Source: Antedon bifida (taxonomy: Eukaryota > Echinodermata > Crinoidea > Comatulida > Antedonidae). Taken from it: a stretch of 64,000 bases of DNA. Location: contig OY727094.1 in assembly GCA_963402885.1 (NCBI GenBank), positions 36,210,501 through 36,274,500 on the forward strand, given 5' to 3'. Under the pieces are notes generated by a model that was not told where the DNA came from, ran no database searches, and saw only the letters and a program-made list of their open reading frames with translations. The position numbers and the translations under genes are program-made. Shown one piece after another: positions 32,868-62,149 of the stretch (positions are counted from its first letter, which is position 1; each line of letters starts with the position of its first letter).

Positions 32868-33120
32868 GTTAAAGACTTTTGGGAATATGAGAGGGGACTA
32901 TACATTTTATTCTAGCTGGAATATTTTTAATGAGTACAATTTCAGGGCATAACATGTCCATTGTTCCTAAAATGTTCTCATCTTACGGTTGTGGTTGTGG
33001 TTGATTTAATATTACACACTACGGAAAAAAAAACCCCTTTTTGAGAGAGTGTAATTTCCGGACATGTAGAGGTACCATATTTAAAAATGTGTACTGTTCA
33101 CATTCAGTACCGAACACCTC

Positions 33121-37351: not shown

Positions 37352-39394
37352 ACGAAGTTCTACTCACAGCTGTTTAACATTTACATGTACTAATTATCTT
37401 TTAAATCTACTGTATTTCCATAATAACAGGCTAAATTATGCAGATTATGTTTAAAAATGTAAGTAATAGGCTAAATGCTGTTAAAAATATAGCCCTGTTT
37501 AAAAAAAAAGTGAATTTCCGTGGGCCTAAATTCATAATTTCTATAATGTAATAATTATATATATATTATAATAATGTATACAAAACTAGTTTTTTTAAAA
37601 TATCTTTTATACATACAAAAAAAAAGAAAAAAAGCGTAAAGTAAGAAAATAATAAAGCACTCATAACCCACTATTCCTTAAGCAAGATCTACAATGTTCT
37701 TAAATCTGGTTAATGAACTTAAGGCTTTTAAAATAAGGTACATTATTTTTTATTCTGCAGGCATAAATATAATATTTTGTTAAAAAGATAAAAGAATCCA
37801 TAAAGAACGACAGTAAGTAAATTGCCTTTCTCTTTTTTACAAAAGGAACACAAGTCGGATTTAGTTAATCCGATCCTGAACAACCTTTCATTTGTAAAAA
37901 TAATTTGTGTAGGTATTTAAATTGGAAAGCTTTTACTTTGCCATTTGACCATTTCAAATTTACTTCATTGATGTCGTTTGTAACATTTGCTACAATATTG
38001 TAATATACTTTATTCATGTTCATTTAATTTTGAATACAGTTTTATGACAATAAATATCAGCTTTATCAAGTATTTCTTGGTTTTCATATTGAGAATTACC
38101 TTGCAGTTCATTGGGATAGAATGCAGAATCAAACATAAACCTCTTCCAAAAACTTACAAAACTACTTGTCTTATTGCAATTATGATGACAATATCGTTAT
38201 TGCTATTTCGTTATATTTTTAGGGGTTATTTTTTAATTACTGAAAAAACGGTTTGTACACTGTTATACGGCGATCCCGTACACTGGTTTCCTATTCACAA
38301 TCGTCGTAACGTAAAAAAGTGGACAGTAAAATTATTATTCTACAGTATTTCCAAAAAAATACAGACTAGGTTTACAACTCGTGAAAGAAAACAATAGCGC
38401 TTAAGATAATATGTATAAAAATGTCCACATCATATAAAATGTAATGAAATCTTATAAAAAGTTTATAACATAAACATATAACAAGATTTGGCAACAGGGA
38501 TTACAGAAAGTATAGCTATAGTTGCAAATAATACATTACTTTTTAATTGTTTATACAAAATAACTTAAAATTGAAAATATCAAAGTAATCTATAATATAT
38601 AAATTATGGTTAATTCTGCACAATGTAAAAACTTCGGTATAAATCTCCGCCTTGGAAACCTACCTTATCTATCTTAGATGTCGGGAAACGTAGATTTGAT
38701 AACATTATCACTAGAACATATTTATTCACTCTGACGAAGAAATGTTTCTAAAGCTAGGTATTGATTTTCTATGTCCAATGATAAACAAATAAAGATGTAT
38801 TGTCCCCCTGAAAAAATAATTCTTAACAAAACATTTTTTGAATATGCCATTTTAATGTAACATAATAGTTATCCACTTTGTATTATCCACTTTGACCTAA
38901 AATTAGATCGAAAAAAAATGTATTTATCTGGAAAAAAATGTAATATAAAGCAAAAAATTGTCAAATTGGCTGCCAATTTAAATAAAATAAAAGAAATATA
39001 ATATGGTAGATACTCCGGTATCTAAACAATTCCAGGTAATTGAAACAAAAATTTGTATTCCAAAGCATACAAATATGATTAATTTGCACTTTAAAGATAA
39101 CATTACATTTTATATGTATTAAATTCGTATTAAATCTTAATTTTACCATCATATTATTCTACTGTCTATTGAATAACTTTCCGTATCCATACTCGACGTG
39201 CGAGGCGCCCTTTAAATTGAGTCTCTTTGTTACTTTACCACGTCTACCGTTGTTGTAGAAAAACAATCACTCAAACTCAAATCATCACATTTTCACTTAC
39301 GTTTCACTGGTGTTTGATCATAGCACATTGTGTTTTTTGTTGTTGTTGCCAAGGAACCTATAGTAGTTTAGTATCGTACCAACACTGCTTTGCC
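37352..39394. other. Intergenic, receptors A to B
   Basis: AT-rich. It holds a truncated AAGATGTATTGTCC-type MITE (38791-38981). An open frame at 37987-38397 (136 codons, hydrophobic stretches ISFIKYFLVFILRI and LIAIMMTISLLLFRYIF) has no recognised relative and AT-driven composition. I do not call it a gene. Confidence 0.4.
38791..38981. mobile_element. Half copy of TA-flanked MITE
   Basis: Starts TAAAGATGTATTGTCCCC and runs parallel to the inverted right half of the MITE at 55392-55874 (TTAATGTAACATAATAGTTA shared), stopping at GGCTGCCAATTT. The other terminus is missing. Confidence 0.75.
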
Positions 39395-40648
39395 ATGTTT
39401 TTGATAATTTCGTACATAATTTCAGGTTTATGTTTACTGCAGTGTACACAAGGGCTATCTTCAGTACAACAGGATGAACCACAAATGCAAGTTCCTGTTG
39501 GCCTAGTGCAAGCATATGTTGGACAACAGAACGTGAAATTGGATTGTCTAGTAGTAACGCATACCAATCAGACGTTATCATGGACATGGTATTTGGTTGA
39601 CAAAAAATCCGATTCTCAACTGACTTCAGACACGTGGATTAAATACCCAAGTTTGTATGCTATTGAACACGTCGATATTGGTATAAACGAGACAAGTTAT
39701 AGCCGTTGTTATACCCTGGTTATAAAAAACACGAATATGTTAAATGTGGGATTGTATAAATGCGAAGCTACAACAAGAAGTGATAGTGGATCTGGTGACG
39801 GGGAGACTGTCGTGATAAGCACAAGGTTGGCCGTATTTGAATTATCTCCTGAACCAAAGGTTTTATGCGGTATTGCAAAAACTAATGTCGAAGAGAATGA
39901 AATATCAATAATACAGTGCAATGCATCTATTGGTACTATTCCAGCGAAATTTCAGATAAGGGCTATCTACAGCAATACACCTGATTCTATCGGTAGGCCT
40001 GTCAACACTACATTTAATGAATGCGGATTCAATTGCGTCGCAGTGGAAGTAAACATAACTCGCAGTATGGATTTATTTCAGTGTGTTGTCTTGCATAACC
40101 TACTTCCAAGCGTGATAACCAACTACACGTCGCGTCTGAATGTACATTACCAGCCAAAATTCGACAATATGCCTCAGATGTTAGAATACGATACAGAAGC
40201 CGATTTGAAGATACCAATTAACGTAGATTCTAACCCAAAAGCATGGATTGAATTAAAGTTGTGGAATGAGCATGAATTGGTAGATGATATAACCTATCTA
40301 AGAAAATTAAATACAGCGTATAAAAACAATTTTGAGCTTTCAATCAAAGAATCAGAAATTGGTAATGCCACACATATTACAATCAAAGCGATTAACAGTA
40401 TTGGATATGATACACACATCATACAACTCTATAAAATGAAACCAGAGTCAACGGAAAACGACAAAGAAGAAGCACAGTACTACTACTGGTGGGTTTTCTC
40501 TTTTCTAGGCCTCCTAGTACCACTGGTGGTATTATTAGGCCTAATAAAATTTTTTATAACACGACACAAGGTTATAAAGGTTATAAAGGAGCGTTCATGT
40601 CGCGGTCCTGTTTTAACTAATCCTTTATCTGCACAGTCTATCGTTTAA
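39395..40648 (+). CDS. IgSF receptor B, short cytoplasmic tail
   Basis: A 417-residue protein from the ATG at 39395; the frame is open from 39227, but only this Met gives a signal peptide (MFLIISYIISGLCLLQC). Three Ig-like domains: the first from VQAYVGQQNVKLDC through the Trp in TLSWTW to YKCEA; the second from SPEPKVLC to FQCVV; the third from QPKFDNMPQMLEY to NSIGYDTH. Membrane span WWVFSFLGLLVPLVVLLGLI with a lysine close to the inner edge, then a basic tail of ~30 residues without tyrosine motifs. Short-tailed members of paired receptor families often signal through adaptors; that is inference here. Intronless. Close relatives: genes C (51186) and D (54954), sharing FNCVTVEVN/FNCVAVEVN and LKIPINVDSNPKA. 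Confidence 0.85.
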   Translation: MFLIISYIISGLCLLQCTQGLSSVQQDEPQMQVPVGLVQAYVGQQNVKLDCLVVTHTNQTLSWTWYLVDKKSDSQLTSDTWIKYPSLYAIEHVDIGINETSYSRCYTLVIKNTNMLNVGLYKCEATTRSDSGSGDGETVVISTRLAVFELSPEPKVLCGIAKTNVEENEISIIQCNASIGTIPAKFQIRAIYSNTPDSIGRPVNTTFNECGFNCVAVEVNITRSMDLFQCVVLHNLLPSVITNYTSRLNVHYQPKFDNMPQMLEYDTEADLKIPINVDSNPKAWIELKLWNEHELVDDITYLRKLNTAYKNNFELSIKESEIGNATHITIKAINSIGYDTHIIQLYKMKPESTENDKEEAQYYYWWVFSFLGLLVPLVVLLGLIKFFITRHKVIKVIKERSCRGPVLTNPLSAQSIV

Positions 40649-40728
40649 AACAGTGGCAGGTCCATAAAATGAAAATATGTAATAACTCCATACTAATATT
40701 TTGAGAATATTAACAATAACAAAAATTT

Positions 40729-40796
40729 GGGCGGATGCAAGAGAGACACCACGAGAATATGCTCATATTCTCGTGTTGTCTCTCTTGCATCCGCCC
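40729..40796. repeat. 33-bp-arm hairpin
   Basis: Arms 40729-40761 and 40764-40796 are complementary with one mismatch and a 2-nt loop, starting GGGCGGATGCAAGAGAG. It lies ~80 bp downstream of the gene B stop. It is followed by a repeat-like end at about 40895-40950 (GGATCCGCCACTGG). It could be a mini-transposon end or form a strong RNA stem in the gene B 3' UTR. Confidence 0.8.
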
Positions 40797-42857
40797 CTTT
40801 TGCACTGAAAATTACGAATTGGTGATTTTTTATCGTCATAAAAGATATCATTGCCCAACTAGGTTGGTCGAAATTCGATTTAAAAATAGATTATGAAGAG
40901 GGAAGGTTAGTGCGGAGATACGCACCGCCTTCTGGATCCGCCACTGGTTAAGTCTTGTAAACAAATAAATAAATGTAAATATATTTTAATTAGGATTTAA
41001 TAATTGTTAAATATACAGTTTGTTATGGTTTTAGAGGTTTACGGTTCAATTATTTGTTAGGTTAGTGTCAAGTTTAATATAGATTTATATAACGTACGAG
41101 TACTCGACGTCCAAGTCAGTTAAATAAGGATCAGTCTGATTGACTACTACTGCCACACAATTTTTATTGCGGAGGAAAGAAGAGATTGAAACACCGGCAC
41201 CAAAACGTCAATTGGATTGAAACATTGTTATTTGATATTAGGAATTAGTAAACTAAATGTTGTAAATATTTGGGTCTGCATTTTTATCACAATTTTCAAA
41301 AATAAAAGTATGGTCTTTGGCAGTCTTTTTCAACAAGGGCATACAATGCATTTCCATTGATCATACATTCTAATAATTATGTAATAAATATAGTTTCCTC
41401 ATTTTTTGTGTGTGCGATTTATAGTTCAAATTACCCAGTAAAATCCCTATTCTTACGGTACATGATGTTGTAAATAGATAGGAATTTAAATGAATATGAA
41501 TATAAATTGAAAGTCAAATTCTGTATCTAAAGAGGATTTATGTACATTTTGTACATTGTTAAATTCATGCCTGTACTGAGCTTTAAACTCATTTCTAAAA
41601 TATATGAGGCGTGCTACACTCATTCACACAAATAGTTTACTATAGTTTTTCTTTACATTTTAAAGTTTTTGATTATTGTGTAGGTGTAGTATTATTTTCG
41701 ACGCCCCTTTATAAGGTATCTGGTATAAGGTATCTGGTATAAGGTTGCCAATAAAGTACGTTATTTTAATTATTTTGTTAAATATGGTTGGTTAAGTTAT
41801 TCATCATTTAAAAATAAACAACTTATAGTCTGTTTGAATGAATTACACTATATTTTTGTTTGGCCTATTTGTGTTTTACTGCTATAGGTTTAAATAACGA
41901 TATAAATCTTGCGGAAAAAAGAATTATCAAGGGAAAAAATATCCGGGCAATCCCAATTTATAATTTATTGCAGACAATAGGCCTAAGCTAGGCCAAGTTA
42001 AACTGCTAACTTCTGCACAAAATTAGCATTTTTTTCTTATTTGTACATGATCAAAGAACCTGATTTGATAATCATCATAAATTAAATGTAGAGATTGTTG
42101 TCTTTCTATGAAAATATAACAAACGTCACAGACTGTCAGCTCTTTCTTATAATATTTCTCATAAATACTACACTTATGGTGATACCGTATGTTCAAATAA
42201 ACGGTTGCGTAAAATGGTAACATAATGTAATCAAATAAAATCCCCTTGATATTGAAGTGATAAAATACAGGAAAAATATATTACAAGTCAAAGTTTATTC
42301 CAATAACGTGATTATTAATTAATTATATAATTACTCGCTTCGCTAGCGCACCATCTAGTGGGTGTACCCGAATGGTTCTCGAACACATGACCAACGCCTC
42401 TGGAAATTGAAGCCCGGGTGACACCTATGCATATGACTGATGAGTAATGCATGTTTTTTTTGTGATGCATCTTGTTAATTTTGTAGACTACTTATATATC
42501 GGTTGTAGTACTAGACACCATTTATAATTATAAATAGAGCAAGCAACAGAAATAATCGATTATAAACAGTAAAAGTGTTTCCCTGGTAGGCCTACCAGGC
42601 CTCATAGTAACATTGAATCGCACCTAAATGTGATTAAATGAATAATAAATAGCATAAATAATTAGTTCAATTAGCCAGCCTGCTATAGTAACATTGAATC
42701 GGGCCTAAATTTGATAAAATGATTAATAAATAAATAATTAGTTCAATTACTAAAGCCTTTATAATTGATTAGTTGAATATCTAAAACAAATAAATTATAG
42801 TTCACGATTCAGTTGAATCACTAAAATCACATTGTAACAATGTGTATGCCTAGATTA

Positions 42858-43412
42858 AAGATGTATTGTCCCTTTGACTAATTCCAACAACATTTTAAAA
42901 AAAGATTTCGAAAAAAAGTGGGTCATTTTGAAGTATCATAATAGTTATTAACTTTCACCAAAAATTAGTCTAAAAAAATCATTTAACTGAAATACATACG
43001 TTTTTTTCTTCAAAAAATAACTTTGACTTCCAGTCAAAGTTTTCGATCAAAACATGTCCCATAATGGAACGCGCTTGTTTGGCTACACTGTATGCATAAT
43101 CATAAAACTTCTTTGCGATCTGTTTGAAAACACCTTCTCAACCGTGACGAGTTGTAAACAATCCTAATTAGCATCATTCATAATGCATACTCATGGTTTG
43201 AAATCTTTGTTTACTTTCGCTCGCGACGATTTTCAAACAAACACAGACAAAATGCAATCAAACTAATTTACCTGTTAATTACGTAAACTTGTTGTTTTTG
43301 GCTCGAAATTTCGACTTAAAGTGAATAACTTTAATATTACTTTGATATGGCCAATTTAAATTTAGAATATTTTGACCTTCATTTTTTTGTGTTCCAAGGG
43401 ACAATACATCTT
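42858..43412. mobile_element. TA-flanked MITE, complete
   Basis: Begins AAGATGTATTGTCCC and ends GGGACAATACATCTT, with TA on each side (TTAA...TTAA context). No open frame. TIR and TA target fit a Tc1/mariner-type non-autonomous element; TTAA would also fit piggyBac, but the half copy at 38791 has only TA. Confidence 0.8.
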
Positions 43413-44199
43413 TAATTAATCGATTATAGTTTATTTCTATATAAAATTGGGTAATAAAAGAGAATAGTAGACATGTGTAATCAATCAATCAATCAATATT
43501 ATTATAATCAATAATATACAAATAGTCGATCGTCTGTAGGAACTCTCTGTAAGGGGAAACTTATACAACGAATACCATTATAGGAATTTAGGAAGTAATA
43601 ATTATGTAATGTTGTGATAGTATTATTGATGATAAAAAATGTAAAAAATAAGAAGCTTGATGTTGTTGTTTATGTGGTCTATTTTTACAATTTATTGCCG
43701 AAAACATCAGTTTCGTTGTGCTTTGACATTGCGATTCCCATGTTTCTTTATCGTCTATCCCTACTCGTCGTGAGAGGCGGCCTATCTCGAGCGGTTCTCT
43801 AATTTTAAAGTGTTCTTCAATGGGAATTCCCATTATTCTAATATCAGGAAATAATGGCGGATACAAGCTATTCAGGGTGTATTTCAATTTAATCATTTTA
43901 ACTGTATTTTGTGGAATGTCTTTGTTTTGTTTACCCAAAATAGAATCTATGACTCAAAGATAACAGTTTCGCAATGGTTACACCTGACTTAAAACAACCC
44001 ACAAATTATACATAATACCGAATATATGTAAGAATCAAATAATTGAACCGTAAAAGTAGTAGTTAAACTGTTTATTTTGTGATGTAACACTTTCTATCGC
44101 AAAGGATATTCAGTGATGACGACTGGATGGAACATTCTCTTCTATGGAGCGCCATTTATGCCTTTATTAACTTTCTGAAATATAAATAGTACTACGGTA

Positions 44200-44495
44200 A
44201 CTGGTCCAGTGGACCAAATTTGGCACTGATGGATTTTGATATATTTTCGTATGTTAATACACTGTGCTCAAGTGGACCTAATTTGGCGCTGGTGAAGCAC
44301 AGTTATATAAAATAGAAAAAGTCACTAAATGTATTTTCATATGTTAATACACTGTGTTCAATGAACTCAGTTTGGTACGAGCGGAGCACAGTGATATAAA
44401 ATACAAATAAAGTCGCTAAATTGTAATATCTGTTGGTATGTTAATACACTCTGCTCCAGTGGACCCATTTTGGCGCACAGCGGAGCACAGTAAAA
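44200..44495. repeat. Three-copy ~90-97 bp tandem repeat
   Basis: ATGTTAATACACT recurs at 44251, 44341 and 44438. Each unit also holds a CCAGTGGACC- or GGAGCACAG-like block and the units have diverged noticeably. No coding potential. Confidence 0.75.
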
Positions 44496-47223
44496 TAGTC
44501 ACATACAAATAGGCCTACTCGAATTCAAAACTATTTCTAATAGACTATCGGTTACTCCATCCGTAATGCAAAAGAATTAGTTCCGAGCCATATCAGTGAT
44601 TTTAATAACTTGCGTTAACAATAGAACAATGGGAATTACTATTCTATTTCAATACATCAGGAAATAATGGCGTATACTAGTTTGTAATAAAATATTACTA
44701 CAGGAGCGAGAAAGAGAGCATTTTCGGAATCAATCCTAAAAAACTCCGTGGTCACCTAAAGTTTGGTGTATGTAAATTGTAGTGCGATGATATAAACGAG
44801 CTTAGAAAAAAAAAGATATTTGAAATAGTATGTTGGACCATGGGGGTATATTATATACATATAAATCAAAGAGCTGCATAGGCAGGATAGAAAAAAATCA
44901 AGATCAAATAAGTTAAAACTACCTCAATATAAGTTTATTTGTACGACATGTTTCGGGCATAGCCCATCATCAGGTGAAGAGAATTGTAACAAAGGATAAC
45001 ATATAAGTCACAAAATTACATAATAAAACAAATCAGTCAATCAAAGATGTTAACATATATATTTATATATTACAATTAAAATAATTTTATACCTCCATGA
45101 TTGGATCAACCTGATTTTTCGGCATGTATTGAATGTAGGACTATTCCATTATTATTATTATGTTTTCGCGCCGCGGCTTTAGCCAGCTATATCCCCAGAG
45201 GACTACTCATTCAGAAGCTATATCAAGCGGAAGCTATAGTTCTAGAAGCTGACATTTTTGGAATTTTGTAAACTGGTCATGCTCAAATTACAAACCTCAA
45301 AGCACGTCTGGGAGAAGAGATTCTATGCAAACATTTGCTGATAAATACAGTATTTTGAGATGCATGTGTAGACGGTAATCTGTAAAATCTGTCAAATAAT
45401 CAAAACTTTATTTTGGTTATAGGCCTATAGGCCGTTATTTACAATGACTCCCATTTGACTGTCAATCTTGGCCGATATTATAATGCTGTAATTCGTCGTC
45501 AGATAATCATTGAATTATGATCAAACAGTCCATAGTAAAGTTTTTGTTTGTAATAGGATACAATTTGTTCACACTTGAATGTCCCTTTATACCATTTATC
45601 ACTTGTTGACATCTAGGCTTGATGAAGTGACCCCAGACTTGACCTTAGCAATAAAATAAACTAAAGTGACAGACATTGAGTCTGTTTAGTCGTCTAAAAT
45701 TGGCTTTAATATTATTTAGAAATCATTTTTATTTAAATTATTTAATAAGCTCATCATCTTTTACAGATTCAGTATTTTTTATTTTAAATTAGAGGGGGAT
45801 GGGGTTCGGTCTTTAAAGAGTTACTGCAAATGTTTGTATTATTATTTTGAATTATTTTTAACCAGATCGTTAGACTAGCTATTTATCCAAAACGGTCTAC
45901 GTAAGTAACCAACGTTGTTACGTTTTTTGCACAAAAGGTGTAAATCTGTAGGAATTTTCTGAAACGTGCTCATCGCGTATATGATGCGCTACGAATATGT
46001 GTCACTGGATAGGTGAATTATGATGGCCGGTTGTTAAAATATGTCTCTAATCTCGTGATTTTACAAAAATCGCGCGCTTATTAGAGCGATTCACTCGATG
46101 AGAAATGCGGATTCCCACTCTCGAAGTCAAGGGTTTTAAAATATATAACAAGGACATATGTCTGGACCTGTTCTCTTTATTTTCTCTAGACAAAGTAGGT
46201 CTACCGTTTGAGAATCAGATGACAATCTGAGCATTAAAGACGAATAAATTGTAAGGATAGAATAATGAACTTCCGATAGTATCAATAAGCTGTATATTCA
46301 TATATAGGGGTATAATCTTTAGTTGAAAACGCCTCTACAAATTGGACAGAAATGGAAGATAAACAAAAATATTTCTTCTGAATTGTGTACCTCATGTGTA
46401 TAATGAGAATTTGAAATACCAGACTTGTGATTTGATCCATTATTTTCAAGGACTACCGTAGGCCCTATTATTGTTATTCATCAAACCATGTTCATGATAG
46501 AAATAAATTAATGGAGCACAAAAGGCTACATTGTGTGTTATATCGATCGTTAACGAAATTCAGTATAAAAATAATAATACTCAATATTCTTCTTTGTTAG
46601 AAATTGGTAGACCATGTCCCGTAAGAAAATACGCATCGATGATTTAATCAATATCTCACAGTTTTTAGCCACTGAAAGTTTCAATGACATTAATTAAAAC
46701 ATGGTAAAAAACAAGATGTTTTTATACACCTTAACTATAGTTGTAATTAAAATATACACAATTATTGTCATGTTTACAGTGTCTTTGTAAAATTACATTG
46801 TCAATCAAATATTTTCCTTTTAACCATTTACGTTGTGCCTTAATTTACTTGTTATGGGATATTTCAATATAATTATTCGCTCCACATACCATGTATACCT
46901 CCACGTGTTGAGAGATTTAATGAACATGCAAAGCTTTAATATTATGCTTAGCTTGAAGTGTTTGTATTTGTGTGTTATAGCCGCTGGAAACAAAATACGT
47001 GGGGTCTAGTGGTCTCAATGTGCTGCTCTATTGTGTTTTGCAGATTCCAATTTGTTTAGTTTTTTAACTTTGTGTTTCGTCTTTTATTGTTCAGATCTAT
47101 AGTGTATTGAAGATCCCTTTCTTTTGTAAGTGTCCAAAGTTCGCTATAAATAAAGGCTGCCTATGCCTACGCGTTGGTAAATAACATGGTACGAGATAAT
47201 AATATAAGATAAAAGAACAATAA

Positions 47224-47299
47224 ATGTTTAGTGTCTATTTGATCATAATATAAATATTTACATTATATCTTATGTCATATATTATGTATTGTATAATGG
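47224..47299 (+). repeat. 76-bp direct repeat, first copy
   Basis: Identical to 48070-48145 (ATGTTTAGTGTCTATTTGAT to GTATAATGG), 846 bp apart in the same orientation. It could be the ends of an unrecognised insertion or a local duplication. Confidence 0.85.
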
Positions 47300-48069
47300 A
47301 ACATTCCAATCTTTGTTCCCTCAGGCGTCGTAAAGGCAAGTACTGTATACTCAAAACAGAAATTCGATCCATTTTTTTTTCAATCTGTGCTGCAGAGGTT
47401 GGATATAGATTTGTTTTAACGGATAATGAGCTAGCGTTTTCAGTCGTTTTTTTATTTATGAACAGATATTTATTATTGCAGTTAAACCACCCACATCATC
47501 ACCCTTCCCTCACTGGCATGAGTAGTGTTGTAAAGCCAGTAGAGGATAGGCCTACAGTGCATCACATGCCCTAAACGCAGAACAACGTTGGTGGGTAGGG
47601 TGGAACCAACTTAAGTATGAATTGGCTCTAAGAAACAATTGAAAACCATTAGGCCTACTAATTAAGTTGAGTTAGATAATTTAATATATATTGACGATTA
47701 AATCGAATTTATGATTTTCCCCGAATAGAGGTGGTTTTCACAAGATTGTTTTACATTATATAAACATATACACGTCGTAGTGATGTATCGTTACATGTAC
47801 TGTACTTTTCAATCGACTAGGACGGTGATAGTTTCAACAAGTATTACATCGAAATGTTTTACTGTGTTTAGTGGTATATTATTTGTAAAACATGAAAACA
47901 ATTAATATTTCGTTGCTAAATGGATAAAGAATATATTTAAAAATTGTTCCTCTTTGCACCCATCCTCTTCCCCATCCCTCAACCCTAATGTTACATATAA
48001 AACACAAATTAAGTTTGTTTAAATTTGACTTAAACAATTGGTCTCATTTTGTGACAAGTTTTTCTCGAA

Positions 48070-48145
48070 ATGTTTAGTGTCTATTTGATCATAATATAAA
48101 TATTTACATTATATCTTATGTCATATATTATGTATTGTATAATGG
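48070..48145 (+). repeat. 76-bp direct repeat, second copy
   Basis: Second copy of 47224-47299. Downstream, ATGGCGCA recurs within 30 bp. Confidence 0.85.
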
Positions 48146-48275
48146 CGCAGAAAACTTGCTAATGGCGCATACAAAACGATGTCGCGTCTTCACATTATTA
48201 TTTATGTCAGTAGATAATAGAGACTTGCCACACTCTTGTATCGTAGCGCCACCAGTGGGTGTTCTGTTGGGTTCA

Positions 48276-48804
48276 GGGACGATTCGGCCCTGAGACGATT
48301 CGGCCCGGGACTATTCGGCCCACTTTTAGTGGGCCGAAACGTCTCACTTTAGACCAAATTCATATTCATTTGTTGGGGTATTTATCAAGTTTCTAAAGGT
48401 GTTTAACAATCCGTATTTTATTAATATTGACAATGTTGATATAATATATATAATAAATTACTAAAAAAACGTAATTTTATATTCAATTTATTACTTCGAA
48501 AACCTTGTTTATTTCGTGCATTCGCCAAGCGGCCAACAGAGGGCGTAACTTGTTTACATCGTTCGCGTGACTAAAAAATGATCATTTTCGACAATTATTT
48601 TTTAAATGTTTGCTTTATTGCATCTTTATCCCTAGTAGTACTACCCCATAGTCTCTCTGAAAATAAAGTTTGGGGAAAAAAGCTTATTTTATGCTTATAA
48701 AATGCATCAAAGCCGATAAATGTAAGTGTGCCGAATCGTCTCAGGGCCGAATCGTCCCGGGCCGAATAGTCCAGGGCAGAATCGTCCCAGGGCCGAATCG
48801 TCCC
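48276..48804. repeat. GGGCCGAATCGTC-array element
   Basis: Left cluster (48276-48345): three GACGATTCGGCCC-like copies and one reversed GGGCCGAAACGTC. Right cluster (48732-48804): five GGGCCGAATCGTC-like copies in the opposite orientation. ~390 bp of AT-rich DNA separates them. The layout is the same as the element in pelota intron 1 with a related motif, so they are two members of one element type. Confidence 0.8.
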
Positions 48805-49687
48805 GTTACCTTCTGTTGCATAGTTGATGAGTTGTCTTTTTACGAATTTTAAGTTGGTACAACCTAGAATGTTAGTAGACTGCGCGCGTTATGATTCAGG
48901 CCTTTTTGGGCATTGTAAAACTAAATACATTTTTGTCTCATGCTTCGGTCTTTATCAACAATCGTTGAGCTGTTTTGTACATACTATAGGCTAATTACGG
49001 CCCTTCCACTCTGGGTGTTATGGGAACGGGGAGGCGCCCCAAGTATATAAAATACCCTCCCTTTTCACCAAGACAAAAATGAATGAGATGAGTAAGAAGA
49101 ATGCAAAAGTTTGAAAAATAAGTTATTTAGAATGGATAGGATGGAATGATCTATTTAATGAAAACCGTAAGGTTAGAGTCCATACACTGTGCAAGTCCAT
49201 TTCCAGTTCCAGTTATTATTTGCATAAAACATATATACAAGGAAACTGTGTTGCTCTGAGACCGTACACAACACAATAAAAAAACAGTACAAAACCACAT
49301 CAAAATATATAAGTTCACATCTCACATTCAATGCCGTACCAGATGGATAAAACTAGTCAGAACTTATTTGTACACGAGAAGTGATGGGCGGTAATGTCTA
49401 CTGCTCCGTAGAACATAGCATGAGATAGGTTCATCATCATCATCTGTTACAATATTTGACTTGGGTAGACATTGCGTTCGCTAATTTCAATGATTCTGTT
49501 TCGGTCGATGAATTTACTTTTCTTTTTTTATGATGTAACTGGTCTTAACTGTCCGTAAAATTCTGCTAAAGCTAGTTTGACTAGAGCAGCGGCGGACTAG
49601 AGTATCCATCGGAAGTCTTTAGCACATGTGTCCTGTCCATTTGTATACGATGTGTTTTGAAATTGAATTTCTTAGTTAATCTCTTTT

Positions 49688-52741: not shown

Positions 52742-53617
52742 TTATATGTCACGATCATCATTCATGGGTATGGTTTGATGCTGCACAACTGTAGTACCTC
52801 GGTTATGTATCTTCCTTAACACTAGTACTATAGGTATTATTATCAATAGCCACAAGTACTGTTTCTCTTGTTTGTCGTTTTCCTTCAACCCTTCCGTTTT
52901 ATTGAGTGTAGTGCTGTGTATGACATTTCCAATATTGTTGTTTGCTTTGAATACATAGTATGTGGCACTACCAATGTCTGATCCTTTGATTGAAAGCATA
53001 TAACTATTTTCAGATGTTTACATTATCTACCGACAAGTTTTATACCTCCGCTTTAGGGTTAGAATCTACGTTAATCGGTATCTTTAAAACGGTCTCTGTG
53101 TCATACGTTAAAATCGTCGACATATTTAGGAATGTTGGCGGGTAACTTACGTTAATACTTCTCGTGTCATTGGTTATCTCGTTTAGTAGAAGATCACTTT
53201 GGACAACACACTTAAATGAATCCATACTGCGAGTTACGTTTACTTCCACTGTGACGCAATTGAATCCGCATTGATCCATTGTTGTAGACTTGAGAATAAC
53301 GGACATAGGTGAATTTTTATGAACAATTGACATTTCACATTTTACTAGAATATTATCAAAAGGTACATTGCACTGAACAATATATATTTTTCCTTCTATG
53401 ACATCAGTTTCTGCAATACTGCATGTAACTTTCGGTAATATTACGTACAATCGTTTTACAGATATCAACTCATTGTCACAAGATCTTGTAGCTTCGCATT
53501 GATACCATTCATTTAGCACGTCCATGTTTTTAATGATCAGTTGATAATTTTCATAAGTCTCGTTATTTCTACTCCAATTGCCGTATTTAACACCATAAAA
53601 ACTTACGTATTTAACAT

Positions 53618-54747
53618 AACTCAAGGCTCCACTCTTGGTCCTCTTCTCTTTTACATCTACATTAACGACCTTTCATCTTCTCTAATCTCTCATAACTCTA
53701 ATCTACATGTTAACATGTATGCTGACGATACCATCATCTACTATTCTAACTCCTCTTCTAAACTAATTGAACAGAATCTTTACAATGCTCTAATTCATCT
53801 CTCTACCTGGCTAACACAATATCTAAAAAGCTAAATCTATGCTCATTGGCTCTTCTCAAAAACTTAAATCTAACTCTATCACCCTTACTCTTAATGATTC
53901 TCCAATTCAATCTTTTACTTCTCATAAACACCTTGGAATCATAATTGACAATACTCTAACCTGGAAATCCCGCATATCTTACCTTTGTAAAAAACTCAAT
54001 TCTATTATCTACTTACTCAAACGTACCTCTAAATTTACAAACAAATCTTCTCTTCATCTTCTGTACAATTCACTTTCCCTTTCTAGACTTGACTACTCTG
54101 CTCTGTCTGGGGTTCTAAACCTTCTTCTACCACTAAACTTACAAAAATCCAGAATAAAGCTATTCGTCTACTACTCGATCTATCTCCCACTACACATCTC
54201 TCTCCTCATCACTTTTCCAGTGCTAAGTCTCTCCCCTTCCATAACGATACCTCTTTCAGCTTGCATGTCTATCTTTCAAAGCTCTACATCACTCTGCTCC
54301 TCTTACTATCTGTCAGCTTTTAACTAAAGTCACTTCCAACGGCCGTATGAACACTAGGCAAATTACTAAAGGAGATTATCCCTCGTCCTTACCTTGAAAT
54401 CTTTAAACTTTCTTTTAGTTTCAATGCTCCTTCTTTCTTTAATTCTCTACCTTTAAGTATTCGTAACTCTTAATTCTCGTAATTTCTTCTCCTTTAAATC
54501 TCTTTTGAAAAAACACCTGTTTCTCTCTCTCTGATTTTATTTCTTTTTATCCATCTTTCATTGTAGGCCTACTGTATATTTATTATATATATATTTATTT
54601 TTTATATCTTTGTTAATTTTGTGTTTTTATAGTTTATTTTGTATTTACTGTTTGTATTGTTTGAGGGTCCCTAATGATCACCCTCATAAAATATTGTTGA
54701 AATAAAATAAATAAATAAAATAAATAAAAATAAATAATAAATAAAAA
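53618..54747 (+). mobile_element. 5'-truncated LINE (CR1/L2-like) inside receptor D
   Basis: The plus strand begins inside a reverse-transcriptase domain: TQGSTLGPLLFYIYINDL then the catalytic box YADDTIIYY. The frame shifts to the connection region (SHKHLGIIIDNTLTWKSRIS, LLKRTSKFTNKSSLHLLYNS). It ends with GTTGAAATAAAATAAATAAA-type A-rich repeats, so the orientation is 5' to 3' on plus, opposite to gene D. Several frameshifts show it is dead. The clade assignment is tentative. Confidence 0.85.
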
Positions 54748-54875
54748 TTCTTTATTCCACATATACCAACTTAACGTCTTCTCATGCTTTTGAACTATGC
54801 AATCCAGTGTCACGTTCGTTTCACCTGCAGTAACTAACTTTATTTCTTCTTTTTCAGGTAATGACCATGATAAAC

Positions 54876-54923
54876 CAGGGAGATTTAAAATAAATTTATT
54901 TATTATTATTTTACATCTCCCTG
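54876..54923. mobile_element. 48-bp palindromic mini-insertion in receptor D
   Basis: CAGGGAGATTTAAAA to TTTTACATCTCCCTG, flanked on both sides by GATAAAC (54869-54875 and 54924-54930). It is the same family as the insertion inside the large transposon. Confidence 0.75.
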
Positions 54924-54954
54924 GATAAACCCGGTGTACACAGGAAACCAACAC

Positions 54955-56753
54955 ACAAAATGAGGTATAACGAGGAAATAAAAGACATTACAAACTTGTG
55001 TTATTAGTATACCAGAAATGCACTGAATAATTTCAGATAAAGCCTTACACTCCTTTGAGTTACAATTACTATGGTGCAGGAGCTTAGCTTGTTGTTTGGA
55101 ATTGCAACAATCCTGTTTACATTTTTCACACACTGGCCTAGTTTACGTTTCGTTTAGGTTTTTGTTAGAATTGAAATGAATTTGAATTGTCAATACAATG
55201 TATAACACGGATAATTGGGTGCTATTTTATGCAAAACAACTACACAAAGGTGGGGTATAGAACGGAATGATAATATTACAAGAGAACAAATTATTAATAT
55301 TGTAATTCTCTCTCCCCCAGACAGACTGTAAGGTTAATTGCATGGACTATTATGTCCATGGTTCAAGCTTATAACTCGTTGCAAGCTGTTAAAGATGTAT
55401 TGTCCCCCAAAAACATGAAAAATGAAGATTAATTAAATCAAACTTTGACCCTCAATATCTCACTAACGCAGTAACTAGAAGGCTGTAAAAATGTTTTGGT
55501 AATTATTCACACCTAAAGCTACAACAAAATACCAAAAGACCTTTTATTAGAATTTTTTCAAGGTCAAACCATATATATAGCCTCTAATAGGTTATTTTGT
55601 AGTTTTAATAAAGTTAATCACTTCCATGGAAAAAAAACGAAAAAAAATAATGTTTTCACTTATAAAATGACAAAAAAATTGTTAAATTCAACCAAAAATC
55701 CATTGGCTGGCAGCCAATTTGACCATTTTTTGCTTTAAATTACATTTTTTTCAGATAAATACATTTTTTTTCGATCCAATTTTTGGTCAAAGTTGATAAC
55801 TATTATGTTACATTAAAATGGAATATTCAACAAATTTTGTTTAAGAATTATTTTTTCAGGGGACAATACATCTTTAATCAGATATTTTCACATGTTTACA
55901 ATGCACAAAATGTAATGGATGATTGGTGCATTACAATGCTCAGTCTATTACTGTTTATTGTTATTCTAATATCTTATGACAACATAGCAAGGCATAAAAA
56001 GTAAATGACAACGTTTATGATATTTAGGCCTCTTTTTCTTTTAATTATATACTGTAATATCTAATCGACACTAGAATGTAATAAAATATTGTATCATAAA
56101 CTTTGCATGTCAAGATTACTGTAACCTCCTTCAGTCGTTTTGCTTTTTCTGAGTTTAATAATAATAATAATAATAATTTATTTGGAGTTTACACTTTTAC
56201 AACAGTGGCACTCGACCAATAATAAATATACAAAAAAAAACATGATATAGTAAACAACAATTACAATAAAAAAAGTCGATGTAGGTCAACATGTCGAAAC
56301 AATTCGACTACAGTAACTACAATACCATTGATAGTTATCACTAAAGCAGCAGGAAACCCACTGACACCTAAAAATACAAAACTACAAGAAATAAACATAT
56401 AGAATAAGTTAGGAACTGTACAATATAAAATGAATTGGGCAACAACAATTTAGACCTAACACTTTAATGAGATAGATATCAATCATTTGGTTTAATTGAT
56501 ATGAACATTACTCGCTCAGAACAACACATCTGTGTGCCCATGCTCTTCTAACATAGTGCTTACAGTAACGATCAAAGACATTTGATATGGATTCGACGTC
56601 ATACATATAATAGTAGTTATCAGTTTCACCTAATACAAGATTTAATTTGGTGTTCAAGTCACCAGAGATAAAATCTTCCCATACATCTAAATGTATTGTA
56701 TATATTGTATACATTGTATATTGTATACATTGTAGGCTATACATTGTATATAT
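54955..56753. other. Intergenic, upstream of receptor D
   Basis: Holds the MITE at 55392-55874, a TAA microsatellite near 56160 that begins an antisense LINE-like 3' end, and a minus-strand fragment at 56508-56690 (FISGDLNTKL) resembling the LINE endonuclease GDLN motif. A TATACATTG minisatellite runs at about 56690-56755. No host gene is seen. Confidence 0.45.
55392..55874. mobile_element. TA-flanked MITE, complete
   Basis: AAGATGTATTGTCCCCC to GGGGACAATACATCTT with TA on both sides. Inside is a second hairpin (TTGGCTGGCAGCCAA near 55702). Same family as 42858-43412 and 38791-38981. Confidence 0.82.
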
Positions 56754-57514
56754 ATTTTTAGTCGCGTGAAAGCGACTCTATAGTTCACTATGTCGGTCGG
56801 TTGGTCTGTCTGTCTGTCTGTCGGTCTGTCTGTCGGTCCGGTATCACTATGCGTTTTATCGCTTTCTGACCTTATCTTGATATCAGTTTAATCTAGCTAA
56901 GTCAATTTTTCACAGAATATTCCTTATGGCCAGGAATCGATGTGGTTATGTTTTCAAGGTGCGCATTAAAAAATTACGCGGTCTACGCACGATTTAACGA
57001 AATCACGTTTGTAATCATATCTTCACAACCATGAATCACAATTAAATAAAATTTGGTACTCATAAATTTCAGGGCATAAATCATCATATGGCAATACAAT
57101 TACGTGCGTAGCGCATGTAACGCATGCGTACGCGCGCTTAAAATTTTCAAAATTTATTTTCGATGAAATAAGAGTACGTTTCAGCCAATTTTAAGCGTTT
57201 ACAAAATTGCCATGAGTGCGCAGATTTTTGCGCGCGCACTGCGCGTTAAATGTTATTGTGCACTCTTTTTGCCCGATTTCTGTTTTCTTGACTTACTTTT
57301 CAACTCGAAATTACGTTATACGAGCACGTCAAAAGTGACAGGCTACGCACGTGTAAATTAAAAAAATATAAATGTTTTTAAACATTTCAACATTTTTAAA
57401 CATGTTCAGTAATTTCGGTCAGTATAGTTTACTATGTCGGTCGGTCGGTCTGTCGGTCCGGTATCACTATGCATTGTAGCACGCGACTTAATGGCTGTTG
57501 GCCTTGTTTAAGTA
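56754..57514 (+). repeat. GGTC/TGTC-array repeat, full-length copy 1
   Basis: Starts TTTTTAGTCGCGTG and ends GGCCTTGTTT. Near each end is a direct repeat of ~60-90 bp: ACTATGTCGG, a variable GGTC/TGTC tract, then GGTCCGGTATCACTATGC. The ~600-bp interior is non-coding with GCGC-rich patches. It is nearly identical to 61376-62149, and the pair flanks receptor E in the same orientation. Confidence 0.85.
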
Positions 57515-58425
57515 CATTGAACTTACACATTATTATCATGACTCCGCCACGTGCCAATATTATTGGCAAAAGTGTAAAATCCTATTTACGACGGTCAGTT
57601 GATAACAATGTGATATTATTAGGCTTAGGCTTAACTGTAGTGAAAACATGTGTTGTACAAAAAATGTATAAACATTCCTCGTCTAAAAATAAGGATAGGC
57701 CTACGTATAAAGAGTTTAATAAGTCATTTATGCGCATATGTTAAAATGCAAAGAAATCATATTATGAAAATTTTTTTAACAATACTAAAGGAAATTTTAA
57801 AAAAACATGGAATATTATAAATGATATAGTACATCCAGGTGGAGGCAAAAATAATGTTCCATCCACTTTTACATCTGGTGACAAAATCATAGAGGGTTGT
57901 GAGCCTATTGCAAACCACATTAACGATTATTTTATTAATGTTGATCTCAAGGTACGAGACAGTATTGAGCCATCAACGGCAAAATACTCTGATTACCTGC
58001 TAAACAGGCAAAGTAACTCTATGTTTTTCTACCATGTAAGAGGAGGAAGTGTTAAAAGTGATTCAATCACTTGATGCAAACAAAACACCTGGTTTTGATG
58101 ATATTTCACCAAAGGTAGTCAAGGCAGTTGGTGATGCTATTGTAAAGCCCTTGACTTACATATCTAACGTATTTCTTCACTCCGGCATAATACCGGAACA
58201 GATTAAAATTGCAAATGTAATCCCTATACTATATACAAAAAAGGGGACCGTCAATTAGCCTCGAATCATCGCCCGATATAACTACTACTAATTTTCTCTA
58301 AAATCTTTGAAAAGATAGTCCATTCCAGATTGTATAATTACTTTAAAACATACAATATACTAAATGATTGGCAATACGGCTTCCGAAATAATCATTCAAC
58401 CTCCACGCTATAATTGATTTGGTCC
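57515..58425 (+). mobile_element. Decayed LINE reverse-transcriptase fragment
   Basis: Broken frames read, in order: linker NAKKSYYENFFNNTKGNFKK, VIQSLDANKTPGFDDISPKV, PLTYISNVFLHSGIIPEQIK, then NHRPI-like, FSKIFEKIVHSRLYNYF and WQYGFRNNHSTS. This is the N-terminal half of a CR1/jockey-type reverse transcriptase. In-frame stops (for example near 57742) and frameshifts show decay. It is on the opposite strand to receptor E and is not the source of E's PHD finger in situ. Confidence 0.82.
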
Positions 58426-59240
58426 ACAAAATACTAAAGGCATCCTACCCCTCATTTTAACTCATGTTTAAAACCAGGTCATCTACCCATTATTCTACTG
58501 CACTCAGGAAAAACTCCTTTTTTTATGGAATAATTTATCTTTAGACATTAATTAATCATCACTAACTTTACAAGATTTCTTACAAGAAATAATATCTAAT
58601 CCATCAATATTCATCAGATGGTTATTAAGTTTGCTCCTATGAAATTTATATCTTAATTTTTCTATTGATACTAAAAATCAGTCTTCGTTTTTTAAAAAAT
58701 GTTTTTACCTTACCATGTACAATGTACATTCTTTTGGATACTCAGCCCTAAAGCTCTTTTTGGATTTATTTGTAACAAGGTTATCTTAAATTTAAATTAT
58801 TAATTATTATATTATTATTAATTTATCATTCAGTTGCAAAAAAATCATCAAGTTTCGTAATGGTATCGCTGCCTTTCTTGCCTAGGCCTAGAATTGTTTG
58901 GTTTTTCGAGCCTTATTAAAGCTACCGAGAATCTGAAATTTTAACTTATTACTAATCTATTAGTTTAGTTATTTTAAAATAGTTTTTCATTATGTGTAAT
59001 GTACTTTAGGCCTATATATACATTTTTATAAAGATCAAAGCAAACTTACATTTACATTATTTACAAATTTAGGCCTACTCAAACTTAGAAGTTTCAGTAG
59101 GTCTCGATAATATATATTTTTCTTCAAATATTTTTTTTAATCCGGGTTTACATATTGATAGCCGGTAGCACAATGTTACCGTAGTCGCTCTTTTAACTGT
59201 GCGTTCTGTGTATAGAATTAAAATCATACTTAGAATGTTG
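58426..59240. other. AT-rich downstream flank of receptor E
   Basis: No gene is visible; this includes the presumed 3' UTR of E. Confidence 0.5.
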
Positions 59241-61238
59241 TCAATTGGTTTGTAGGTTTGCAATCATATCTTTCTGTTCTTTTACCATTGCTGTCAATGA
59301 AGCGATATTACTAGCCATGTCTGACATTAATTGCTGCTGATCCGAATTGGTCTGAAGTATAGATTCAACAGTACCCGGCATATTCTTGCAATACGGACAC
59401 ATCCACACTTTGGGTGTCGTAGTTGACTTTATTTTGAGACAAAGTCTATGATATTGTTTTTGGCAAAGTGAGCATTCCAGCTGACTCTCCTGCATCATAA
59501 CATGATTAAACTTACATTGTTTGATGCAACTAATTCTTTCAGTTGTATTTTCGAGTCTTGTACTTTTATTTTGTGTTGTATGACTACCAGTTGCTGTAGA
59601 ATGTTCGTCTATTACCTCTGTGTATTCAACTCTTTCAGTTGCTGTAGAATGTTCGTCTATTACCTCTGTGTATTCAACTCTTTCAGTTGCTGTAGAATGT
59701 TCGTCTCTTACCTCTGTGTATTCAACTCTTTCAATTGTTCGTATCACTCTGGCGTTATATTCAATTCTTGGATGGTCAATTTCAAGGTATGTTAGATTTT
59801 CCTTGTCAGCTATGTCGTCTGCTTCGGGATCTATGTTGGGTGATTCCTCTTTGCTTCTTTCGTGGAAACAAACCTCTTTTGCGACTGAAGCATTGGAACT
59901 GTTTGCTTCATATAGTTTTGTTTCATAGATATGATGAGTCGCTGAATGTATGGGGTTGGATGTGGATGAACTACCTGTGACATTGAGACCAATACTGTGA
60001 CGACTCTTCTCACCTTGGCTCCTCATCTTTCGGATGGTGATTATAATTATGATAACTACCCCAACTAATGTAAAAAATACTACACTTACTGTTATCGTCA
60101 AAACATAATAATTCGTAACCACATCATCATCATCAGTTTCATAATCAATATAATATTTTGTAGAAGTTGTTGATACATTATTTTCAGTATCATTAATCTT
60201 AGTTGATTGATGAATATTTTGGTTTGTTTTTATAGGCAAGCTGGTTGTAGTGTATTTTGTATAAACTGTTGTAGAATCCCATAGCAATGTTAACAACTCA
60301 GGAATACTACTCCCAGCATTATTATCAGCTAAAACAACAATGTCTGTCCCGTTTGTAACATTATAAATATTACATATATAAAGTGTGGACTTCTCAGTTA
60401 CTGATGTACTACTGCAGATAAATTGACGGTAATTATGTGACCAAGTCACATTAGCCTCAGGATTCGATGAAATAGCCACTGCTATTGATGCGTCACGTGT
60501 GACATTAGCGGAGACATCGATTGAGTAAGTTACATTTGTTGAAAGCACTCTTGGTGAGTAGCTGACATTAAGTGGTCCACTAGTACAGTTTGTTGTTGTA
60601 TTTGGAATTGAAAATGTGGCTCTACAGCACAACACGGCGTTGTTTAAATCATAAGACACTGAAATATCGTGTAGTATACGTTTGTCTGACGAGAATATCA
60701 GATGTTGTCCTGTTTTGCCATTTGTGTAAAGAACGAATAATTCTAAGTAATTAGGAGAATTTGCGCCATGTGACGAACACATAAAAGACAATGTCTCCCC
60801 TTCCTTAACGTCGTGTTTAATATCATGGCATTTAGGACTTTCGGGTATTGAATATTCGATGATATTTGCAGCATTACTGCTGAATACACAACTTCTATAT
60901 TCAGAATCAAAACACACTTGACATTTATACATACCTCTGTAGTGCCCGGTTACACTATTAATCCGCAATGTAAAACTCTTACTCGTATAATTATTTACAA
61001 CAGAATAGCCAGGAACAAGAATATCTTTGTTTTTAGTAATATGCAAGTCTTCTTTATACCATGAAATGGCATACACATCTGTATCTTGTACAACGCAACT
61101 CAGCTCTGCTTGGTTAGAAATAGGTACAATATCCATCGATGGCGTTACACTTACATTGTACATTGCTTCAACTACTAATAGTAGGCCTAGAAAATTAAGC
61201 ACGTATGTCAGAAACCAGACATTCATACTGAGCCACAT
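59241..61238 (-). CDS. IgSF receptor E: ITIM array fused to a PHD finger
   Basis: One uninterrupted 665-codon frame, close paralogue of gene A. Signal peptide about 1-25; Ig-like domains about 28-128 (Cys48, Trp60, Cys106), 137-225 and 231-320; Thr/Asp-rich stalk; membrane span about 377-401, then basic IRKMRSQGEKSR. The tail has HIYETKLYEA, ITIM LTYLEI (482-487), then VEYTEV at 505, 521 and 537 in a 16-residue tandem repeat. After this comes a complete C4HC3 PHD-type finger (Cys571, 575, 589, 592, His597, Cys600, 614, 617, with the usual Trp612), then a coiled coil rich in Met/Gln/Lys. PHD plus coiled coil is typical of CR1-type LINE ORF1 proteins. Gene A stops shortly after its second ITIM, so the PHD part is an addition. 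Function is inferred: inhibitory receptor with an extra cytoplasmic zinc finger. Confidence 0.87.
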   Translation of the reverse strand: MWLSMNVWFLTYVLNFLGLLLVVEAMYNVSVTPSMDIVPISNQAELSCVVQDTDVYAISWYKEDLHITKNKDILVPGYSVVNNYTSKSFTLRINSVTGHYRGMYKCQVCFDSEYRSCVFSSNAANIIEYSIPESPKCHDIKHDVKEGETLSFMCSSHGANSPNYLELFVLYTNGKTGQHLIFSSDKRILHDISVSYDLNNAVLCCRATFSIPNTTTNCTSGPLNVSYSPRVLSTNVTYSIDVSANVTRDASIAVAISSNPEANVTWSHNYRQFICSSTSVTEKSTLYICNIYNVTNGTDIVVLADNNAGSSIPELLTLLWDSTTVYTKYTTTSLPIKTNQNIHQSTKINDTENNVSTTSTKYYIDYETDDDDVVTNYYVLTITVSVVFFTLVGVVIIIIITIRKMRSQGEKSRHSIGLNVTGSSSTSNPIHSATHHIYETKLYEANSSNASVAKEVCFHERSKEESPNIDPEADDIADKENLTYLEIDHPRIEYNARVIRTIERVEYTEVRDEHSTATERVEYTEVIDEHSTATERVEYTEVIDEHSTATGSHTTQNKSTRLENTTERISCIKQCKFNHVMMQESQLECSLCQKQYHRLCLKIKSTTTPKVWMCPYCKNMPGTVESILQTNSDQQQLMSDMASNIASLTAMVKEQKDMIANLQTN
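59586..59729 (-). repeat. 3 x 48-bp tandem repeat encoding ITIMs
   Basis: Three in-frame 48-bp units in receptor E, each encoding RVEYTEV-IDEH-STATE (Arg for Ile in the first). Each adds one V-x-Y-x-x-V phosphotyrosine motif. Gene A has a single equivalent (VDYAEV), so the array expanded after the two genes split. Confidence 0.93.
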
Positions 61239-61375
61239 TTTGAATCAAAGTGTTTCATATGATTCTAACTTTCTCATAAATGTCCGCAATATTCACTTTC
61301 AGTTTCTAGTTTTATTGTTAATTAATTAGATAATGATGTTTTTTTTTTTATTATTATGACGTCGGGTTTACTTTT

Positions 61376-62149
61376 ATTTTTAGTCGCGTGGACGCGACTC
61401 TATAGTTCACTATGTCGGTCGGTTGGTCTGTCTGTCTGTCTGTCGGTCGGTCCGGTATCACTATGCGTTTTATTGCTTTCTGACCTTATATTGATATCAG
61501 TTTAATCTAGCTAAGTCAATTTTTCACAGAATATTCCTTATGGCCAGGAATCGATGTGGTTATGTTTTCACGGTGCGCAATAAAAAATTACGCGGTCTAC
61601 GCACGATTTAACGAAATCACGTTTGTAATCATATCTTCACAACCATGAATCACAATTAAATAAAATGTGGTACTCATAAATTTCAGGGCATGAATCATCA
61701 TATGGCAATACAATTACGTGCGTAGCGCATGTAACGCATGCGTACGCACGTTATTTTCGATGAAATAAGAGTACGTTTCAGGCAATTTTAAGCGTTTACA
61801 AAATTGCTATGTGCACAGGTTTTTGCGCGCGTACTGCGCGTTAAATGTTATTGCGCACTCTTTTTGCCCGATTTCTGTTTTCTTGACTTACTTTTTAACT
61901 CGAAATTACGTTATACGAGCACGTCAAAAGTGACAGGCTACGCACGTGTAAATTAAAAAAATATAAATGTTTTTAAACATTTCAACATTTTTAAACATGT
62001 TCAGTAATTTCGGTCAGTATAGTTCACTATGTCGGTCGGTCGGTCGGTCGGTCTGTCTGTCGGTCTGTCGGTCTGTCTGTCTGTCGGTCCGGTATCACTA
62101 TGCATTGTAGCACGCGACTTAATGGCTGTTGGCCTTGTTTTTTTCTGTT
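61376..62149 (+). repeat. GGTC/TGTC-array repeat, full-length copy 2
   Basis: Same structure and orientation as 56754-57514, with AGTCGCGTGGACGCGACT hairpin start and GGCCTTGTTT end. Array lengths and a short interior deletion near 61750 differ. It lies ~140 bp upstream of the receptor E start codon, so it may be part of the promoter region of E. Confidence 0.85.

What the first reader, a model, noticed from the sequence alone, without database searches (positions are those of the whole stretch)
59379..59740. Inhibitory-type Ig receptor fused in frame to a retrotransposon-like PHD finger
Receptor E keeps the A-type ectodomain, membrane span and ITIM tail, then continues without stop or intron into a complete C4HC3 finger (all eight ligands and Trp612) and a coiled coil. 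PHD plus coiled coil is characteristic of CR1-type LINE ORF1. I know of no described ITIM receptor carrying a cytoplasmic PHD finger. It could be domain capture that gives the tail an oligomerisation or histone/peptide-binding module, or even a releasable nuclear fragment.
Basis: partly seen in the sequence, partly recalled or inferred. Interest (0 to 1): 0.88.

Follow-up and report, generated by a model that had tools for sequence, protein, structure and literature searches.

The report
Immune-type receptor with tail zinc finger
An animal gene for an inhibitory-type cell-surface receptor reads straight on into a zinc-finger-plus-coil module usually found in nuclear or mobile-element proteins; if the messenger RNA really includes it, this is an unusual receptor tail, but no transcript or relative could be examined.

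Summary
The reading frame is real. On the minus strand, 61238-59241, one uninterrupted 665-codon frame encodes a putative signal peptide, an Ig ectodomain, a putative membrane span and four ITIM-like motifs. It then runs without a stop into a PHD-type finger (C571-C617, eight Cys/His positions, W612) and a helix (624-664) with heptad periodicity. The finger regex hits once in the six-frame window and 0 times in 30 shuffles. Paralogue A (35723-37348) aligns up to the second ITIM (35% identity) and has no finger. Qualifications: Pfam's PHD model covers ligands 3-8 only and passes only on a segment I cut out (24.3 against 24.0 bits); the first pair is C-x3-C; AlphaFold2 did not build the finger. 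Alignment with A ends within one codon of a strong donor-like site (59711), and two AATAAA lie inside the tail, so transcripts could omit the finger. Also found: a 48-bp repeat triplicates the second ITIM. Retrotransposon origin is plausible by architecture only: no relative was found, and the host-genome search did not complete. Verdict: genuine fused frame, likely a new receptor-tail variant; transcript and origin unproven.

The parts
61164..61238 (-). start codon and putative signal peptide, residues 1-25
   Evidence: read from the translation; no signal-peptide program run
60114..61163 (-). Ig-type ectodomain, residues 26-375
   Evidence: Pfam Ig_3 2.7e-13, two stretches; 35% identity to paralogue A
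60033..60107 (-). putative membrane span, residues 378-402
   Evidence: hydrophobic run read from the translation; no topology program run
59778..59795 (-). ITIM-like motif 1, LTYLEI (482-487), shared with A
59588..59737 (-). 48-bp tandem repeat, 3.1 copies, 98% matches; three VEYTEV ITIM-like motifs (505, 521, 537)
   Evidence: Tandem Repeats Finder; motifs
59710..59711 (-). donor-like GT, ACAGAG|GTAAGAGA, within one codon of the end of the alignment with A
   Evidence: matrix score 6.4; 0.24% of 7414 GTs in the window score as high; matrix recalled, not trained
59529..59588 (-). linker, residues 551-570; AATAAA at 59570
59388..59528 (-). PHD-type finger, residues 571-617
   Evidence: Pfam PHD 24.3 bits on 566-620, profile 8-47; PDB phmmer best 1.2e-6, MLL3 homolog; regex unique
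59247..59369 (-). helix with heptad pattern, residues 624-664
   Evidence: AlphaFold2 single-sequence helix; block pLDDT 87-95 for 637-665, 51-65 before that; heptad p 0.0005
59241..59243 (-). stop codon
35723..37348 (+). paralogue A, 542 aa, two ITIMs in common with E, no finger

Best explanation
E is a single-frame ITIM-type Ig receptor of a local paralogue cluster. Relative to A, its tail differs in two ways after the shared second ITIM: a 48-bp minisatellite has triplicated that ITIM, and a PHD-type finger with a short coiled coil follows in frame as the C terminus. Most likely mechanism: the phosphorylated ITIM array docks SH2 phosphatases at the membrane, and the coil (with the zinc finger as a stabilising or peptide-binding cap) self-associates tails, raising the local density of docking sites. 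Shown: the frame, motifs, partial finger signature and heptad helix. Inferred: transcription through the finger, phosphorylation, self-association, and origin of the module (most likely a mobile-element ORF1).
For: Open 665-codon frame; P about 1.4e-5 for the last 155 codons by chance. Paralogue A aligns with E28-510 and ends without a finger. dN/dS between A and E below 1 (0.535 over 456 codons, NG86), so the receptor part behaves as constrained coding sequence. Matches to Pfam and PDB PHDs. Helix and heptads. The 48-bp repeat unit keeps the frame. No alternative last exon shared by E (59711-51401) and A (37280-49500) was seen in the part of the output shown.
Against: No transcript. Strong donor-like site at 59711, within one codon of where the alignment with A stops; AATAAA at 59570 and 59433 inside the frame. 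Codon score of residues 566-620 in frame is -0.143, like noncoding 100-codon windows (mean -0.134, sd 0.067); 566-665 scores -0.023, the noncoding 95th percentile, while a stop-bearing frame of the same stretch scores +0.091; synonymous codon score slightly negative. No homologue of the tail in any collection searched. AlphaFold2 drew helices instead of a finger there (block pLDDT 51-62, single sequence) and Foldseek found nothing at E <= 0.001.
Confidence: 0.45

Rival explanations
1. The finger and coil are not part of the usual protein: E is spliced at 59711 (or 60013) to an unrecognised last exon, or ends at an internal poly(A) signal, and the finger is recent mobile-element debris that happens to be open and in frame.
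For: Donor-like ACAGAG|GTAAGAGA at the end of the A/E alignment and GCCAAG|GTGAGAAG at 60013; AATAAA at 59570 and 59433. Noncoding-like codon score of the finger. LINE activity in the same locus: an RVT_1 fragment (7.6e-10) interrupts a neighbouring receptor.
Against: Debris would have to be in the same orientation, in frame, with an open 20-codon linker and intact ligands. No shared downstream exon seen. A 222-nt splice 59711-59490 would itself stay in frame and keep ligands 3-8.
Confidence: 0.3
2. The fusion is real but the finger came from a host PHD gene, not from a retrotransposon.
For: The sequence matches found are host chromatin proteins (MLL3, PHF23, Lid, ATXR5 and others). No ORF1 remainder or ORF2 recognised downstream on the minus strand.
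Against: The PDB set holds few or no LINE ORF1 PHDs (recalled), so the match list cannot discriminate; PHD and coiled coil together are listed for CR1 subgroup 3 ORF1 (PMC4120745).
Confidence: 0.15
3. E is a decaying or misassembled locus and the fusion has no biological product.
For: The window holds a near-perfect 7006-nt inverted repeat (1 mismatch) and one LINE-disrupted receptor, so the cluster is rearranging and assembly errors are possible.
Against: E has no stop or frameshift in 665 codons and sits about 26 kb from the inverted repeat; A/E dN/dS below 1.
Confidence: 0.1

Closest known systems
ITIM-bearing Ig receptors (LILRB, CD22, Siglec, CEACAM1 type; recalled, with LILRB seen in passages of PMC11999971, and CD22 in an abstract start)
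   Same: Ig ectodomain, one span, several [SILV]xYxx[ILV] motifs in the tail
   Different: As recalled, those tails carry no zinc finger; E continues into a finger and coil. Sequence relationship beyond generic Ig domains not shown.
CR1/L2 LINE ORF1 with PHD and coiled coil (PMC4120745, passages read)
   Same: PHD and coiled coil together (CR1 subgroup 3)
   Different: No RRM or CCHC seen after the coil, which ends at the stop; fused behind a receptor; no sequence homologue recovered
PTM, plant membrane-bound PHD transcription factor (review PMC4593955, passages read)
   Same: PHD and membrane spans in one protein; a released fragment reported in the nucleus
   Different: Chloroplast envelope protein with homeodomain and DDT; not a receptor of this type; homology not tested
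MARCH/RING-CH membrane ligases (recalled)
   Same: C4HC3 finger in a membrane protein
   Different: E has CxxC-x4-HxxC spacing and W two before ligand 7, as in PHD; no RINGv row in the Pfam tables

Membership tests
ITIM-type Ig receptor | Ig domain(s) | tested here: met
   Pfam Ig_3 2.7e-13, I-set 7.9e-11
ITIM-type Ig receptor | [SILV]xYxx[ILV] motifs behind a membrane span | tested here: met
   four motifs at 482, 505, 521, 537; span read by eye only
ITIM-type Ig receptor | phosphatase recruitment and inhibition | not testable with these tools
   needs biochemistry
PHD finger | ligands 3-8 with CxxC-x4-HxxC ... W-x-CxxC | tested here: met
   Pfam PHD 24.3 vs 24.0 cutoff on 566-620 only, below cutoff on longer stretches; regex
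PHD finger | canonical first Cys pair | tested here: inconclusive
   C571-x3-C575 present, outside the Pfam alignment; of five PDB alignments shown only ATXR5 covers it, with one residue extra in E
PHD finger | cross-brace fold | tested here: inconclusive
   single-sequence AlphaFold2 model drew low-confidence helices there; Foldseek none at E <= 0.001
CR1/L2 LINE ORF1 | PHD followed by coiled coil | tested here: met
   published listing
CR1/L2 LINE ORF1 | sequence homology to ORF1 copies, or repetitive in the host genome | tested here: inconclusive
   none in the collections searched, which are poor in animal genomes; one copy in the window; own-genome search not answered
CR1/L2 LINE ORF1 | remaining ORF1 domains and ORF2 downstream on the same strand | tested here: inconclusive
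   nothing recognised by eye; Pfam none on 11 of 21 minus-strand frames of 25 aa or more in 57500-59240
RING-CH (MARCH) | RINGv domain | tested here: not met
   no RINGv row in the Pfam tables

The most novel reading that the evidence does not exclude
An invertebrate-type inhibitory receptor has captured a mobile-element PHD-coil module as its tail, which clusters the ITIM array at the membrane and, after cleavage, could act as a chromatin-reading fragment.
Probability: 0.12. Interest if true: 0.85.

Novelty: new variant of a known kind. Interest (0 to 1): 0.5.

Why it matters
Two changes sit side by side in one receptor tail: a minisatellite that multiplies an ITIM, and a finger-coil module in frame behind it. 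If transcribed, it would be a test case for how immune-type receptors gain signalling parts, possibly from mobile elements, and whether a zinc-finger reader can work in a membrane receptor. The paralogue A is a natural control.

Tried and rejected
RING-CH/MARCH finger: rejected on spacing and lack of a RINGv row. Insertion from the neighbouring LINE-like fragment at 57.7-58.5 kb: LINE by eye only (Pfam none at E <= 0.01 on 57745-58071 and 58040-58255); it reads on the plus strand, and its order relative to the finger does not suit inversion of the 5' part of one insertion; reasoning only. Target-site duplication around the finger: longest shared word 11 bp (59518 and 59052), but 11 of 200 shuffles reach 11 or more: no evidence. 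Linker as a decayed repeat unit: 14-base local match, shuffle p 0.035 of 2000: weak, left open. Missing last exon shared by A and E: blastp of stop-delimited peptides and blastn; what I could see was receptor genes, dispersed repeats and many short chance-like rows, but the output was cut and part of the peptide list was not seen. One row set aside there: six residues of A's unique tail (LYYRPI) against another frame of E's coil region, E 0.031 among many comparisons. Fold of the finger: low-confidence model, Foldseek 12 matches at E 4.5 or worse.

Literature: no paper describing an ITIM receptor with a PHD finger was seen in one search (0 papers), 44 (0), 57 (2, listing only) or 58 (8 of 1,178 shown; two hold all four terms, judged by title and abstract start only). 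Searches (20 of 770 shown; 1; 4; 2; 4) were on neighbouring questions. All cover open-licence PMC papers only. The Kapitonov and Jurka paper on PHD in CR1 is not held.

Full report
Observation. The minus strand holds one open frame, 61244-59241, whose first ATG (61238) gives 665 residues. Only two sense codons lie between the preceding stop and that ATG, so the genomic frame does not extend upstream. By eye the protein has a signal peptide (1-25), an ectodomain with Ig domains (Pfam Ig_3 2.7e-13, two stretches), a membrane span (about 378-402), and a tail. The tail has LTYLEI (482) and three VEYTEV motifs (505, 521, 537). It then runs through a 20-residue linker into C571-x3-C575-x13-C589-x2-C592-x4-H597-x2-C600-x13-C614-x2-C617 with W612, then a helix 624-664, and a stop.

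Is it more than chance? At the stop frequency of chosen noncoding stretches (0.069) the last 155 codons would be open with probability about 1.4e-5. A regex for ligands 3-8 plus the aromatic residue hits once in the six-frame window, at 59474, and 0 times in 30 whole-window mononucleotide shuffles. Pfam gives PHD_4 1.1e-5 for the whole protein (25.7 bits, below its cutoff of 30.6). PHD scores 15.7 bits on the whole protein, 22.3 on residues 557-665 and 24.3 on residues 566-620 alone, against a cutoff of 24.0, so it passes only on the segment I cut. PDB phmmer lists 36 distinct sequences at E <= 0.05; the best is an MLL3 homolog at 1.2e-6, and by their names all 36 are proteins that carry PHD fingers (recalled). 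The best stretches start after C575 except in four rows: 5vab from C571, and 4ljn, 5b79 and 5vdc from just before C575. Of the five alignments shown, only ATXR5 covers the first pair, where E has one residue more. So 'all eight ligands' is right as a count, and the first pair is the uncertain part. The coil: heptad score p 0.0005 by shuffling, with a score of my own, and a lone helix 624-664 in AlphaFold2, confident for 637-665 (block pLDDT 87-95) and not before (51-65). In the finger the single-sequence model drew helices at low confidence (51-62) and not a PHD fold; Foldseek found nothing at E <= 0.001.

Paralogue. Receptor A (+, 35723-37348, 542 aa) aligns with E28-510 at 35% identity (E 1e-67). 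dN/dS is 0.535 over 456 codons (NG86), 0.53 for E191-310 (0.52 by YN00), 0.37 for E1-190 (NG86, dS 1.9, near saturation), and 0.73 (NG86) or 0.49 (YN00) for the span and tail; YN00 failed for two of the four sets. The alignment stops at the second ITIM (E510, A519). A goes on for 23 residues that blastp does not align there. E goes on with a 48-bp repeat, 3.1 copies at 98%, so the second ITIM is triplicated. The finger tail has no other match in the window (one 12-residue match at E 0.70 set aside).

Results against a simple reading. Within one codon of the end of the alignment lies a donor-like site, ACAGAG|GTAAGAGA at 59711; 0.24% of the 7414 GTs in the window score as high on a matrix recalled from general knowledge. 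Another, scoring higher, is at 60013, just after the span. AATAAA occurs at 59570 and 59433 inside the frame and at 58770 below it; ATTAAA at 59141. Trained on 1748 receptor codons, the codon score of residues 566-620 is -0.143 in frame, against a noncoding mean of -0.134 (sd 0.067, 100-codon windows). The coil scores +0.124, and the two together -0.023, which is the noncoding 95th percentile; another frame of the same stretch, with 8 stops, scores +0.091. Synonymous usage is also slightly negative over 566-665 (-0.066), though the tail 376-500 is near zero too (-0.015), so the test is weak. A splice from 59711 to an exon starting at 59489 would remove 222 nt in frame and keep ligands 3-8. Without RNA none of these can be ruled in or out.

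Origin. Three protein searches found no relative: one search scored 8000 candidates, none at E <= 0.001; one search had 13 candidates (none at E <= 0.01) and one search had 2 (none at E <= 0.1). Two scans of viral contigs and one of prokaryote genome contigs confirmed none of 1, 15 and 51 pattern matches. These collections are poor in animal genomes by their descriptions or by inference, so the absence says little. The own genome could not be searched in 16 tries. The LINE ORF1 idea rests on architecture: a survey of Jockey-superfamily ORF1s reports PHDs in many CR1 and L2 subgroups, lists PHD, coiled coil, RRM and CCHC for CR1 subgroup 3, and says no functional study of the LINE PHD was known to its authors (PMC4120745, passages read). 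LINEs have been active in this cluster: a plus-strand RVT_1 fragment (7.6e-10) splits a C-type receptor whose halves lie in the frames 53040-53672 and 54634-54987. But no ORF1 remainder or ORF2 was recognised below the stop of E on the minus strand: by eye, and by Pfam on 11 of 21 frames of 25 aa or more.

Mechanism. The most economical reading is a receptor whose ITIM array has been multiplied and whose C terminus is a self-association module. A heptad helix of about 40 residues is long enough to pair tails (established knowledge of coiled coils), which would concentrate phosphatase docking sites. A PHD could bind a peptide or simply cap the coil. Nuclear release has a precedent in kind in plant PTM (PMC4593955, passages read), and nothing in E tests it. 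The host was not identified; 'animal' rests on the Ig receptors, and no call named the organism.

Verdict. The frame fusion is confirmed; protein-level reality is my best bet but not shown; LINE origin is plausible and untested. New variant of a known kind, interest 0.5.

Noticed in passing
window 59588-59737: 48-bp minisatellite (3.1 copies, 98%) multiplies an ITIM-like motif in frame, so copy number could vary between alleles.
   Followed up: yes
window 5524-12529 and 26131-33136: 7006-nt inverted repeat with 1 mismatch, 13.6 kb between arms, each arm carrying the same 195-aa integrase-core frame (rva_4 5.9e-69 on the copy tested, 7543-8127). Recent inverted duplication, mobile element or assembly duplication.
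   Followed up: partly
window 53040-54987: A C-type Ig receptor split by a plus-strand LINE fragment with a reverse-transcriptase piece and an AAAT-rich end.
   Followed up: partly
window 56753-57509 and 61375-62140: Two copies (90% over 793 columns) of a repeat holding AGTCGCGTG near one end and CACGCGACT near the other, one on each side of gene E; further ends at 49708, 49796, 52570 and 62989. Looks like a terminal-inverted-repeat element family.
   Followed up: partly
window 37268-37348: Receptor A has a T-rich run and TTATAG just before its last codons, and a third ITIM-like motif LYYRPI in its unique tail.
   Followed up: no
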